This document shows positions 13,504 to 64,000 of a stretch of DNA of 64,000 nucleotides, piece after piece (the stretch's first letter is position 1; every line of letters starts with the position of its first letter). Origin of the DNA: Planctomycetales bacterium 10988 (GTDB lineage Bacteria > Planctomycetota > Planctomycetia > Pirellulales > Pb10988); the NCBI GenBank assembly GCA_009664345.1, contig CP043547.1:6104709-6168708 (forward strand). The letters are read 5' to 3'. A model generated the notes under the pieces. That model was not told where the DNA came from, did not search any database, and was given only the letters and a program-made list of their open reading frames with translations. A program made the translations under genes and the position numbers.

Positions 13504-13530
13504 TTTTCAGCAAGTGTCTCATAAATAAAA

Positions 13531-13570
13531 AAGCTACCGTCCGGAGATTCCAGGCGGTAGCTTGATTTTT
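13531..13570. terminator. Bidirectional rho-independent terminator
   Basis: Perfect nine-base stem AAGCTACCG / CGGTAGCTT (13531-13539 with 13555-13563), flanked by an A run on the left and a T run on the right. It serves the convergent VIT/vWA and rpoN genes. Confidence 0.85.
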
Positions 13571-13599
13571 TCGCTAAGTTCTCAACTTATGAAAAGAAC

Positions 13600-18835: not shown

Positions 18836-18957
18836 AAAACGGCCTTGGATGGGAGACCCACATGGACAAGAGATTGACTGCATGTGGCTGCTTCCGGTTA
18901 GGACCTGACCAGGTTAACAGGATCTCATTCCGTGGATCTCCCATCGAAGACCGTTCT
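18836..18957 (-). ncRNA. ffs: Signal recognition particle RNA, small bacterial (4.5S) type
   Basis: Read on the minus strand, the core contains CTGGTCAGGTCC and CCGGAAGCAGCC, the conserved asymmetric loop and GNRA-capped tip that bind Ffh. The arms pair over the length of the molecule: GATGGGAGA near the 5' end with TCTCCCATC near the 3' end, and AACGG with CCGTT at the base. A T run (18834-18839 on the plus strand as A) ends the transcript. About 115-120 nucleotides, without an Alu domain. It lies between dnaX and the SF2 helicase gene. Confidence 0.93.
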
Positions 18958-26317: not shown

Positions 26318-26716
26318 GCCAAGGTATTTCAGATGATCGCTGGCGAACTTTCGCGAGAGGAAAGTCCGGGCTTCGCAGGACAAGATGGTGGATAACCTCC
26401 ACCGGTCGCAAGACTAGGGAAAGTGCAACAGAAAAGATACCGCCTTAGAGTGAAAACTCGGTAAGGGTGAAATGGTGAGGTAAGAGCTCACCAGCAGGTG
26501 CGGCAACGCACTTGGCTTGGTAAACCCCATCTGAAGCAATGCCAAACAGAAAGCATGGTCCCTCGGGGCCTCGGATCGGTCCGGTCCGTGTTTTCGGGTA
26601 GGCTGCTTGAAACTCCAAGTAATGGGAGTTCTAGAGAAATGATCATCCCTCATTCGGAGCGAAGGTCTCCTTCTTTCCGATGAGAGACAGAACCCGGCTT
26701 ATCGAAATACCTTGGC
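26318..26716 (+). ncRNA. rnpB: RNase P RNA, bacterial type A-like
   Basis: The universally conserved CR-I segment GAGGAAAGTCCGGGC appears 37 bases in, and the 3' ACAGAACCCGGCTTA segment (CR-V) pairs with it. The ends form a perfect thirteen-base P1 helix: GCCAAGGTATTTC (26318-26330) with GAAATACCTTGGC (26704-26716). A T-rich stretch follows as terminator. The catalytic RNA trims 5' leaders of tRNA precursors. About 399 nucleotides, as expected. Confidence 0.96.
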
Positions 26717-26754
26717 TTTTTCTTTCTCTCCGCAACCCCTACCACTTTTCAGAA

Positions 26755-32320: not shown

Positions 32321-32393
32321 AGCGGGTGATGAGATTCGAACTCACGACAACAACGTTGGCAACGTTGTGCTCTACCAACTGAGCTACACCCGC
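32321..32393 (-). tRNA. tRNA-Gly (anticodon GCC)
   Basis: On the minus strand the acceptor arm GCGGGTG pairs with CACCCGC; the D arm is GCTC...GAGC; the anticodon stem CAACG/CGTTG holds the loop TTGCCAA, giving anticodon GCC; the T arm contains GAGTTCGAATC. Discriminator T; CCA is not encoded. 73 nucleotides. Confidence 0.96.
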
Positions 32394-60452: not shown

Positions 60453-63152
60453 TTATTGATCGAGCGATTCGGTAATGAGTTGCATTGCCAACTCTAAAGC
60501 CTTTGGCAGATTGGCGGGGTCTTTCCCACCGGCTTGGGCAAGCTGCGGACGTCCGCCTCCTTTGCCTCCGACTTCTTGAGCGACTTTGCCAACGAGCTTC
60601 CCGGCGTGCAACCCTTGTTTGACCAAATCATCGGTTACGGCGGCCAAGAGGCTGACTTTTTCCTCCTCGGGGTCTTTCCAACCCAGCACAATTGCCGCGG
60701 TTCCCGCTTTTTGACGCAACCGATCCGCTTGAGCACGCATCGCCTCGGTCGGCGCGGCGGGGAGTTCCCCAACGATGACCTTGGCCCCGTTCAACTCTTT
60801 CGCACGTTGGAAAAGCTTATCCGCTTCCCCTTGCAGGTCTGCGACGGCTCCGCTTTTCAATTGTTTGTCGAGTTTTTTCAACTCTTGTTGAAGGGAAGCA
60901 ATCCGCTCCGGCAAGTCCTGAGGCGTACATCGCAACGTACCCGCGGCATCGGTCAGCCATTGGCGTTCCGCCTGGGTTTGTTTGAGGGCTTCCGGTCCAG
61001 TCACGCCGGTGATGCGGCGAATTCCTTTGGAAACCAACTCTTCGCCAACTAAGCGGAAAAGGCCGACTTGCCCGGTATTATCCAGATGCGTCCCGCCGCA
61101 GAACTCTTGGCTAAAGCCATCGCCCACGGTGACGACGCGGACGGTATCGCCATATTTATCTCCGAAGAAGGCTCGAACCCCTGGTAAATTTCGAGCTTCC
61201 TCCGTCGGCATTTCTTGCCATTCAACAGGCAGCGCGGAGAAAGCTTTTTCATTGACCAGACGTTCGACTTCCAGTTTTTCTTCCGGAGTCAGCGGTTTAT
61301 CGTGGGCAAAGTCAAAGGTAAAGTTCTCCGCTTTCACCTTGGAGCCGCGTTGCTCGACATGATCGCCGAGGATTTTTTGCAAGGCCCAGTGCGCCAAGTG
61401 GGTCGCCGTGTGATTGCGGCGGATATCTTCCCTTCGCTGGTCAACGACTGTCTTGGCAGGTTCGCCCGCTTCGATCATTCCAGATTCGACATAGCCTAGA
61501 TGAACGACCGCATCGCCTTGACGAATGGAATCGAGAACGCGAAACGCTCCTGACTCCTGCTTGATCAGGCCGCTATCGCCGACCTGGCCGCCAGCTTCCG
61601 CATAGAACGAAGTCTTATCCAAAATGAGGCCAGCTTGCATCGGCGGTTCTTCACCTTCGGTCGGTTGATCGATGGCCACCAGCTTTCCGTCGGTGACAAA
61701 GTCTTGCTCCAGAATCCAGCCTAAGACCTTCCCTTCTCCGGTCAGACTCGACCAGCGAAGACGGTCATCCGTCGCGGGAAGACCGCCGGATACATTGAGG
61801 ACAAGTTGCGAAGCTTTTTTGCCTCCCGAAACCTTCCGATGGTCGTCCCACCGCTTTTCGTACTGTTTCTCGTCAATTGAAAGCTTCTTTTCTTCCGCCA
61901 TTTGACGCATGAGGTCCAGCGGAAAGCCGTGTGTTGTGGCAAGTTCAAAAGCATCATCTCCTGAAATCACACCTTTCTTGCTTTTTGCTTTCTTTGCGGT
62001 TTCTTCAAATAGGGAAAGCCCACGCGCGATCGTACGATAGAAGTCTTCTTCTTCCGTACGAATGGTCTTTTCGATAAAGGTTTGTTTCTCCTTCAACTCT
62101 GGGAAGGCATCGCCCATCTCTGTAACGAGCGTTGGAACGAGCTTATAAACAAAGGGTTCTCGTTGTTCGAATTGCTGATAGCAAAAACGGACCGAACGAC
62201 GCAAAACACTTCGTAAGGATGAACCTGACCCTTGATTATCTGGCATCGCTCCATCGGCAATCGCGAAAGACGCCATGCGAACGTGATCGGCAATCACGCG
62301 GAACGCAATGTCCTTCGAATCATCCATCTTTCGCCCATATTTCAAGCCGCTGAGTTGTTCAATCGCAGTCAGCAACGGAGTGAAAATATCGGTGTCGTAG
62401 TTGCTTTTCTTCCCTTGGAGAGCCGCCACTACCCGTTCGAAGCCCATTCCGGTATCGACGTGTTTCGAAGGAAGCGTTGTCAGTTTGCCATCTTCGGACT
62501 GATTATATTGTATAAAGACGAGATTCCAGATCTCGACGACGCGGGGATCATCTTTATTGACGAGACTCCCACCACTTTTATTTTCAGTCAGGTCGATGTG
62601 GATTTCGCTACAAGGTCCACACGGCCCGGTGTCGCCCATGGTCCAGAAGTTGTCTTTCTTCCCACAATGAAGAATATGACCTTCGGGAATATCGGTGACT
62701 TTCTTCCAAAGTTCCTCCGCCTCGGTATCCGCTTCTAAGCCGAGTTCTTTGTCGCCACCGAAGATCGTCGCGTGAAGGCGATCCTTTTCAATGCCCCAAA
62801 CTTCGGTCAACAACGTCCAGGCCCATTCAATCGCTTCCGCTTTGTAATAGTCGCCAAAGGACCAATTGCCCAGCATTTCGAAGAAGGTGTGGTGATAGGT
62901 GTCGCGGCCGACTTCTTCCAAGTCATTATGTTTTCCACTGACGCGGATGCACTTCTGTGAGTTGACCGCCCGAGAGTACGGGCGAGAACCTTGACCGAGG
63001 AACACATCCTTAAATTGATTCATCCCGGCATTGGTAAAATTCAATGAAGGATCGCCGTGCGGAATCACACTCGACGAAGGGACAAACGTATGTCCGTGTT
63101 TCTCGACGAAATAATCGATGAATTGTTGACGAATTTCCTTAGCAGTCGGCAT
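60453..63152 (-). CDS. alaS: Alanine-tRNA ligase
   Basis: 899 residues. Class II catalytic core at the N-terminus (FTNAGMNQFKDVFLG, RPYSRAVNSQKCIRVSGKHNDL-type in shorter segments, GMGFERVVA), then the editing domain with the zinc-site motifs HTATHLAHWAL and CGGTHLDNTGQ, and the C-terminal oligomerisation domain with GKGGGRPQLAQAGG. It charges tRNA-Ala and edits mischarged Ser/Gly. The frame is open to 63191, but the ATG at 63152 follows AGGAG nine bases earlier and begins at the usual MPTAKEIRQ, so I start there. Confidence 0.97.
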   Translation of the reverse strand: MPTAKEIRQQFIDYFVEKHGHTFVPSSSVIPHGDPSLNFTNAGMNQFKDVFLGQGSRPYSRAVNSQKCIRVSGKHNDLEEVGRDTYHHTFFEMLGNWSFGDYYKAEAIEWAWTLLTEVWGIEKDRLHATIFGGDKELGLEADTEAEELWKKVTDIPEGHILHCGKKDNFWTMGDTGPCGPCSEIHIDLTENKSGGSLVNKDDPRVVEIWNLVFIQYNQSEDGKLTTLPSKHVDTGMGFERVVAALQGKKSNYDTDIFTPLLTAIEQLSGLKYGRKMDDSKDIAFRVIADHVRMASFAIADGAMPDNQGSGSSLRSVLRRSVRFCYQQFEQREPFVYKLVPTLVTEMGDAFPELKEKQTFIEKTIRTEEEDFYRTIARGLSLFEETAKKAKSKKGVISGDDAFELATTHGFPLDLMRQMAEEKKLSIDEKQYEKRWDDHRKVSGGKKASQLVLNVSGGLPATDDRLRWSSLTGEGKVLGWILEQDFVTDGKLVAIDQPTEGEEPPMQAGLILDKTSFYAEAGGQVGDSGLIKQESGAFRVLDSIRQGDAVVHLGYVESGMIEAGEPAKTVVDQRREDIRRNHTATHLAHWALQKILGDHVEQRGSKVKAENFTFDFAHDKPLTPEEKLEVERLVNEKAFSALPVEWQEMPTEEARNLPGVRAFFGDKYGDTVRVVTVGDGFSQEFCGGTHLDNTGQVGLFRLVGEELVSKGIRRITGVTGPEALKQTQAERQWLTDAAGTLRCTPQDLPERIASLQQELKKLDKQLKSGAVADLQGEADKLFQRAKELNGAKVIVGELPAAPTEAMRAQADRLRQKAGTAAIVLGWKDPEEEKVSLLAAVTDDLVKQGLHAGKLVGKVAQEVGGKGGGRPQLAQAGGKDPANLPKALELAMQLITESLDQ

Positions 63153-63809
63153 GAACGCGGCTCCTGCGCGAATAGTTGTTATCGCTTTCAATTCCCACTT
63201 TGTGGCAGGGAGATTGATTCACTGGTGTTGTATTGGGTTTCTCTCAGGGGCATCCTCTGCGGAGTGCCTCCCTTATAAGGAGAGATAAGAAGTTAATTTA
63301 GCTCGCATCTAGTTGAGAAAAAAGGGGTAGAGCATCGAAAGTGGTGCGAGGGGAACGACTTGATACCTTGAAAGGCAGGACCGTCTGACAAGAAGATCAC
63401 TGAGTATCGGCACTTGCCAGAACAAGTTATCCCCCGACTACGTAAAATAGGGAGGTCTTGTAAAACCCGCAAACTTTCCAGCCGCCCCCCTCGGGGGAAT
63501 GGTTTAATTTTCCAGGGTCGCTTGTCTTTTCCTAGTAACTAGTTAGGATAGTTAAGACGAACACAGAACCTGGAAGGTAATTGAAGCTCTGACATAACTG
63601 ATGTGAAAAAGTCTAAAACACTAGAACGCTGGTGATTTTGCTTTCAATCTGAAGGTTTTGTCCGAGCTACTTGGATACCTTGGAAACTCTGGTGGGTATG
63701 GACTTCGCAGCCGCGATGGGGAGGGTCGTTTAGATCCATTTCGTTGCTTAACGATGGAATCTTTCACGTTGCGGCCGGCTATTCGACCGTAACCACCGAC
63801 TACTCAATT
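63153..63809. other. Long gene-free region between alaS and nusA
   Basis: About 660 bases up to the nusA promoter (799 to the nusA start). It must contain the leftward alaS promoter. A GC-rich hairpin CCCC-CTCG-GGGG-type (63486-63497) with flanking CCA/TGG and a TTTAATTTT stretch resembles a rightward terminator, but no gene reads into it. No rimP, which commonly precedes nusA, was found. Confidence 0.45.
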
Positions 63810-63818
63810 TGCTATGAT
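63810..63818 (+). promoter_or_regulatory. Extended -10 promoter for nusA
   Basis: TGCTATGAT: TG, one base, then TATGAT (63813-63818), an extended -10 element needing no good -35. Transcription would start near 63825, eight bases before the structured leader. Confidence 0.5.
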
Positions 63819-63832
63819 TAACCCTGTATAAA

Positions 63833-63915
63833 AAGTTGTGTGGCCGACTCTGGAAAGAGACGGAGTTGGAACTTGCCAAGAAATCACTTGGCACCATCAC
63901 GACCGAATACAACTT
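63833..63915 (+). promoter_or_regulatory. Potential three-way-junction leader RNA before nusA
   Basis: Outer stem AAGTTGT (63833-63839) with ACAACTT (63909-63915). Inside are two hairpins: CCGACTC (63844-63850) with GAGTTGG (63863-63869, one G-T pair), and TGCCAAG (63874-63880) with CTTGGCA (63887-63893). It ends 36 bases before the nusA ATG. The arrangement looks like a structured 5' leader, class unknown. Confidence 0.5.
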
Positions 63916-63951
63916 AAAATAATAGCGCGGATCTTAGGGAGTTTGTACTGC

Positions 63952-64000
63952 ATGAATCCCGCCGAATTGCTGCGGCTCGTCGACGCCATCCATCGTGACA
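63952..64000 (+). CDS. nusA: Transcription termination/antitermination factor NusA, N-terminus only
   Basis: The window ends 16 codons into the frame: MNPAELLRLVDAIHRD. This matches the first residues of NusA in planctomycetes, where the N-terminal polymerase-binding domain starts MNPxExLRxVDxIHRD. AGGGAG lies ten bases before the ATG. The rest lies outside, so S1/KH domains cannot be confirmed. No rimP is visible upstream. Confidence 0.75.
   Translation, partial: MNPAELLRLVDAIHRD

What the first reader, a model, noticed from the sequence alone, without database searches (positions are those of the whole stretch)
63810..63952. Structured leader before nusA with a possible three-way junction
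An extended -10 element is followed within about 15 bases by an 83-base segment with a 7-bp closing stem and two inner 7-bp hairpins, ending 36 bases before the ATG. NusA is known to be autoregulated in some bacteria, so a cis-acting leader is plausible. The usual upstream rimP is missing.
Basis: partly seen in the sequence, partly recalled or inferred. Interest (0 to 1): 0.6.

Follow-up and report, generated by a model that had tools for sequence, protein, structure and literature searches.

The report
Structured RNA leader ahead of nusA
In this planctomycete the mRNA for the transcription factor NusA appears to begin with an unusually stable three-way-junction fold that has no relative I could find, while about half of the sampled relatives in its order carry a different, uncatalogued hairpin element at the same place, so a built-in control element for nusA is plausible but untested.

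Summary
An extended -10 (TGCTATGAT, 63810-63818) precedes a 90-nt segment that folds as a three-way junction (-34.6 kcal/mol; z -5.96, 0 of 200 shuffles; lower z than all 512 control windows), more stable on the nusA strand. nusA starts at 63952; infB and rbfA follow.

The species is alone in its family in the held data, and a covariance model of this fold finds only itself (own genome; 146 genomes of the order). Covariation of these three stems therefore cannot be tested.

Relatives gave more: 72 of 146 sampled Pirellulales genomes match a model of a nusA leader element: a TTGACA promoter followed at the predicted start by a hairpin (loop CUAAGU) and an AAGGAGUUUYG-like tail. All 52 accepted matches that could be placed lie upstream of nusA. 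Its arms covary (native pairing beats 20,000 arm swaps, z -5.9). It matches no Rfam family and is not detectable in the window. rimP is undetected order-wide, so its absence here is not special.

Most likely: a lineage-specific 5' leader controlling nusA-infB, perhaps by NusA feedback (inferred). No terminator or Shine-Dalgarno occlusion was found.

The parts
63810..63818 (+). extended -10-like element TGCTATGAT; predicted transcription start about 63825-63827
   Evidence: sequence; no consensus -35, so the promoter is inferred
63825..63911 (+). three-way-junction RNA: outer stem 63825-63829/63907-63911; P1 63835-63843/63894-63903 (U63897 bulged); P2 63844-63852/63861-63869; P3 63874-63880/63887-63893
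   Evidence: MFE and centroid agree, -34.6 kcal/mol, z -5.96; control windows; single copy
   Evidence: constrained fold -32.1 kcal/mol
63936..63941 (+). likely Shine-Dalgarno sequence AGGGAG, 10 nt before the ATG, outside the junction
   Evidence: sequence; fold of the whole leader
63952..64000 (+). start of nusA; the gene continues past the window and is followed by infB and an rbfA-like gene
   Evidence: TIGR01953 335 bits, TIGR00487 691 bits; ORFs; relatives' homology begins at the same ATG

Best explanation
63825-63911 is a structured 5' leader of the nusA-infB mRNA that begins at or within a few bases of the transcript's 5' end and folds into a three-way junction. It is most likely a cis-acting control element, this lineage's own counterpart of the leader hairpin that many other Pirellulales carry at the nusA promoter. 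The favoured mechanism is feedback: NusA, through its RNA-binding domains or by acting on polymerase paused on the nascent hairpins, recognises the leader and lowers expression of its own operon. Shown: the fold is far more stable than chance, strand-biased and single-copy, and relatives have a nusA-specific, covarying leader hairpin. Inferred: the start site, the function, NusA as the ligand, and that the window's fold replaces or descends from the relatives' element.
For: Fold z -5.96 on the + strand against -3.18 on the - strand; lower z than 512 control windows; P2, P3 and P1 form in turn as the transcript grows. Relatives' element: a sequence-only model matches 72 of 146 genomes of the order, nearly always once per genome; of 53 matches accepted, the 52 with a known nusA position are all upstream of nusA on its strand. 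Its hairpin is real RNA structure: fold z drops exactly at the predicted start (mean -1.07, s.e. 0.23, 36 leaders) and native arms pair better than swapped arms (z -5.9, 0 of 20,000; two control arm pairs give about +0.8). Autoregulation of nusA is known: in B. subtilis by NusA-stimulated termination in the leader (PMC12288461), in E. coli (work cited in PMC2965389), and proposed in S. agalactiae (PMC4448216).
Against: No homologue of the three-way junction in the own genome, in 100 relatives' loci or in 146 genomes, so no covariation test is possible. The window is not detected by the order-wide model; its best alignment falls at this spot but is not significant (17 of 400 shuffles as good over the element, 18 of 100 over the intergenic region). 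No terminator U-tract and no Shine-Dalgarno occlusion by the junction. No expression or binding data.
Confidence: 0.42

Rival explanations
1. Passive or processing element: a stable 5'-terminal structure that protects the mRNA from 5'-end-dependent decay, or a double-stranded RNase III site that sets decay, without sensing NusA.
For: It begins at the predicted 5' end, and P1 and P2 stack without a gap (18 pairs with one bulge). RNase III cleavage in the E. coli metY-nusA leader is known (PMC2777011).
Against: Nothing here separates it from the favoured reading. In relatives the loop and tail sequences are conserved as well as the stem, which suggests recognition rather than bare stability, but that element is not detected here.
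Confidence: 0.25
2. The stable fold is a by-product of sequence drift in a long intergenic region and has no function.
For: No homologue or conservation of this fold is available; the order-wide element is not detected here.
Against: z -5.96 and lower than every control window; strand asymmetry; position at the predicted 5' end of nusA.
Confidence: 0.15
3. Transcription attenuation as in B. subtilis: the leader holds a NusA-stimulated intrinsic terminator.
For: Some relatives' leaders carry terminators: 19 of 72 against 5-17 in eight shuffled sets, a few reading GGGACTYGTNCCC followed by T6, close to the rimP-leader motif of PMC2965389.
Against: The window's leader has no U-tract after any hairpin on the + strand.
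Confidence: 0.05
4. nusA is transcribed from elsewhere, and 63825-63911 is an independent small RNA or a structure inside a longer leader that starts further upstream.
For: The intergenic region is about 800 bases long, the promoter lacks a -35, and a second, weaker structured stretch lies at 63571-63690. In relatives the promoter can lie 400-580 bases from nusA.
Against: No terminator follows the element, and no better match to the relatives' nusA promoter exists in the intergenic region.
Confidence: 0.13

Closest known systems
rimP-leader attenuator of rimP-nusA-infB operons (PMC2965389)
   Same: Leader of the operon that holds nusA and infB; NusA proposed as the protein that reads it.
   Different: That is a short GGGc...gCCC terminator with a U-stretch ahead of rimP. 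Here there is no terminator, no rimP, and a three-way junction.
B. subtilis nusA autoregulatory leader (NusA-stimulated intrinsic termination; PMC12288461)
   Same: Leader of an operon that encodes NusA; feedback on NusA level is the proposed role.
   Different: Works by a terminator in the leader; the window's leader has none.
E. coli metY-nusA-infB leader (RNase III processing, PMC2777011; NusA feedback, cited in PMC2965389)
   Same: Structured RNA upstream of nusA-infB; processing or feedback.
   Different: There the operon starts with a tRNA gene and includes rimP; no tRNA here, no rimP.
Pirellulales nusA leader hairpin element
   Same: Sits at the predicted 5' end of the nusA transcript and starts with a stem; the window shares TATNNTTA and AAGTTGTG.
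   Different: One hairpin with a CUAAGU loop and AAGGAGUUUYG-like tail after a TTGACA promoter; the window has no TTGACA, no GATTRC start and a three-way junction, and the model does not find it.

Membership tests
Pirellulales nusA leader hairpin element | match to the sequence model R2 (promoter plus element) | tested here: not met
   no match in the own genome; best score near here -0.7 bits with filters off
Pirellulales nusA leader hairpin element | shared sequence by profile alignment at the predicted start | tested here: inconclusive
   best place is this element, but 17 of 400 and 18 of 100 shuffles do as well
Pirellulales nusA leader hairpin element | structured RNA at the predicted 5' end of the nusA transcript | tested here: met
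   three-way junction from 63825, z -5.96; start site itself inferred
rimP-leader attenuator | GGGc...gCCC hairpin followed by a U-stretch in the leader | tested here: not met
   no terminator in the window's leader; no Rfam match at 63150-64000 except two chance-level ones
rimP-leader attenuator | lies upstream of rimP as first gene of the operon | tested here: not met
   no RimP_N match in the genome
NusA-autoregulated nusA leaders | located in the 5' leader of the operon encoding NusA | tested here: met
   ends 36-40 bases before the nusA ATG; transcript inferred
NusA-autoregulated nusA leaders | expression responds to NusA level | not testable with these tools
   needs reporter or RNA-seq

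The most novel reading that the evidence does not exclude
The order Pirellulales has an undescribed class of nusA-specific leader RNAs, a 5'-terminal hairpin with a CUAAGU loop and an AAGGAGUUUYG-like tail, read by NusA itself, in a group with no detectable RimP; the window's lineage has replaced or rebuilt it as a three-way junction with two competing closing stems, so the same feedback loop is kept with a fast-changing RNA.
Probability: 0.25. Interest if true: 0.65.

Novelty: new variant of a known kind. Interest (0 to 1): 0.42.

Why it matters
NusA acts in pausing, termination and antitermination, and how bacteria set its level is known in only a few models. A covarying, nusA-only leader element across an order, with no Rfam match and with a different fold in at least one lineage, would be a testable case of one feedback loop solved with different RNA structures. 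The element in relatives, more than the window's own fold, is the part a specialist could act on now.

Tried and rejected
RNAalifold on the sequence-based alignment of the relatives' element gave no structure: the 3' arm shifts register between groups, so I used an arm-swap test instead. Shine-Dalgarno switch (GACUCU of P2 with GGAGUU at the Shine-Dalgarno site): 13 kcal/mol worse than the MFE (the AUG and Shine-Dalgarno probability rows of that script are off by one base and are not used). Terminator on the - strand: the A-run 63830-63834 would read as U5, but the - strand folds less well and alaS is divergent. Open frame from GTG 63838 in frame with nusA: relatives' homology starts at the ATG, so taken as chance. 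A small ORF after the relatives' AAGGAG tail: no conserved start codon by eye. tRNA or tmRNA before nusA: none. Plasmid collection: no match. NusA tree: the window sits on a weakly supported basal branch (0.48 with two Schlesneria sequences), not used as evidence. Weak matches of the window's model in other genomes (E 0.07-0.3) lie on contigs other than the nusA contig where nusA is known, so taken as chance. A first search for TSS data in planctomycetes was malformed; a second found one general paper.

Full report
What is there. The window ends 49 bases into a gene that continues in the genome as NusA (435 residues; TIGR01953, 335 bits), followed by infB (TIGR00487, 691 bits) and an rbfA-like ORF on the same strand. 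Its ATG is at 63952. Upstream lie about 800 bases without a gene, then alaS on the other strand. TGCTATGAT at 63810-63818 reads as an extended -10; there is no consensus -35. The 90 bases from 63825 fold as a three-way junction: P1 63835-63843/63894-63903, P2 63844-63869, P3 63874-63893, with UGUAU/AUACA outside P1. Minimum-energy and centroid structures agree, -34.6 kcal/mol, z -5.96, no shuffle of 200 as stable; the opposite strand gives z -3.18. A 100-nt window here has a lower z than 512 control windows from both strands of the 64 kb; the next lowest are inside ORFs or a clear terminator.

Homologues of this fold. The held data contain no other genome of the family; the nearest are in the same order, Pirellulales by the titles of related contigs. 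A covariance model built from the window's fold alone finds itself at 118 bits and nothing else in the own genome, nothing convincing in 100 relatives' nusA loci, and only weak matches (E 0.07-0.3) in four of 146 genomes of the order.

What relatives have. Reading nusA upstream regions of 115 loci showed a shared layout in many: TTGACA, 16-17 bases, TATNNT, then GATTRC, CTAAGT and a tail like AAGGAGTTTYG. A sequence-only model of 28 of these, searched over 146 genomes, matches 72 of them at E up to 0.05, nearly always once. I accepted 53 matches in genomes numbered up to G116 (51 with E up to 6e-4 and two full-length weaker ones); all 52 with a known nusA position lie upstream of nusA on its strand, 33 within 600 bases and 19 at 0.6-3 kb. 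In loci of the second kind that I read, the gene in between looks like an ABC-transporter ATPase. The eight further partial matches I checked, at E 0.01-0.05, lie elsewhere and look like chance. A class-wide search gave one marginal partial match outside the order. The model was trained on nusA leaders, partly from the same genomes, so its finding nusA is expected; that it finds almost nothing else is not.

Is the relatives' element RNA? Fold z in sliding 36-nt windows is near -0.2 across the promoter and falls to -1.07 (s.e. 0.23) where the predicted transcript begins, with a second dip after the tail. In 63 distinct elements, the duplex energy of each 5' arm with its own 3' arm averages -7.2 kcal/mol, against -5.7 for swapped partners; none of 20,000 permutations reaches it (z -5.9), while two control arm pairs give +0.8 and +0.9. 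Related sequences make swaps look native, so the test is if anything conservative. Arms were set by an anchor on the loop, and a minority (for example L067, L112, L113) pair poorly. No Rfam family matches these loci at its gathering score.

Relation of the two. The model does not detect the window. A global profile alignment puts its best match at this element, sharing TATGATTA and AAGTTGTG, but 17 of 400 shuffles do as well over the element and 18 of 100 over the whole intergenic region. Descent is possible, not shown. One family (L026, L030, L047 and others) has yet another conserved-looking leader, so lineage-specific rebuilding of nusA leaders would not be unusual.

Mechanism. Leaders of 19 of 72 relatives carry terminator-like hairpins, against 5-17 in eight shuffled sets, and a few read GGGACTYGTNCCC-T6, close to the rimP-leader of PMC2965389. 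The window has none, so B. subtilis-type attenuation (PMC12288461) is unlikely here. The junction does not pair with the Shine-Dalgarno sequence, and the alternative that would is 13 kcal/mol worse. What remains is a 5'-terminal structure that a protein binds co-transcriptionally, that makes polymerase pause, or that sets mRNA decay. I favour NusA feedback, because nusA autoregulation is established in distant bacteria and because the relatives' element is nusA-specific; this step is inference. RNase III processing or 5'-end protection is the strongest rival.

rimP. PF02576 gives no match in the own genome or in 39 genomes of the order, while 10 of 14 control genomes are positive. The missing rimP is thus an order-level feature, or a RimP too diverged for that model.

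Noticed in passing
L088, L103, L105, L106 and similar, last 60 bases before the nusA ATG: A second conserved-looking hairpin (GCGGCGGGCGAAATACGCCGC) next to a GGAG Shine-Dalgarno sequence, preceded by repeats like ACAATTYGRACAACTTGG, in one group of relatives.
   Followed up: no
L026, L030, L047, L049, L058, L059, L098, upstream of nusA: A different shared nusA leader (GGGTTGC...GGCTGCTGGTTCGCGG...GGCGCCCAT...ATGGCGTCGGC) in another family of the order.
   Followed up: partly
L012, L045, L029, L118 and others, directly upstream of nusA: An ABC-transporter ATPase-like gene sits between the leader element and nusA in many relatives.
   Followed up: partly
L016, L018, L110, L116 leaders: Terminators reading GGGACTYGTNCCC followed by T6 or more, similar to the published rimP-leader motif although rimP was not found in the order.
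   Followed up: partly
window 63571-63690, + strand: A second, weaker structured stretch (z about -3) in the alaS-nusA intergenic region, with no ORF over 100 codons.
   Followed up: no
window 13523-13571: Strong inverted repeat flanked by A- and T-runs, a likely bidirectional terminator.
   Followed up: partly
window 26321-26717 (+), 18846-18944 (-), 32321-32393 (-): RNase P RNA (class A), bacterial small SRP RNA and a tRNA by Rfam.
   Followed up: no
L128, nusA leader: About five tandem copies of a TACTGCGGTAAGCTACCGGA-like unit inside the nusA leader.
   Followed up: no
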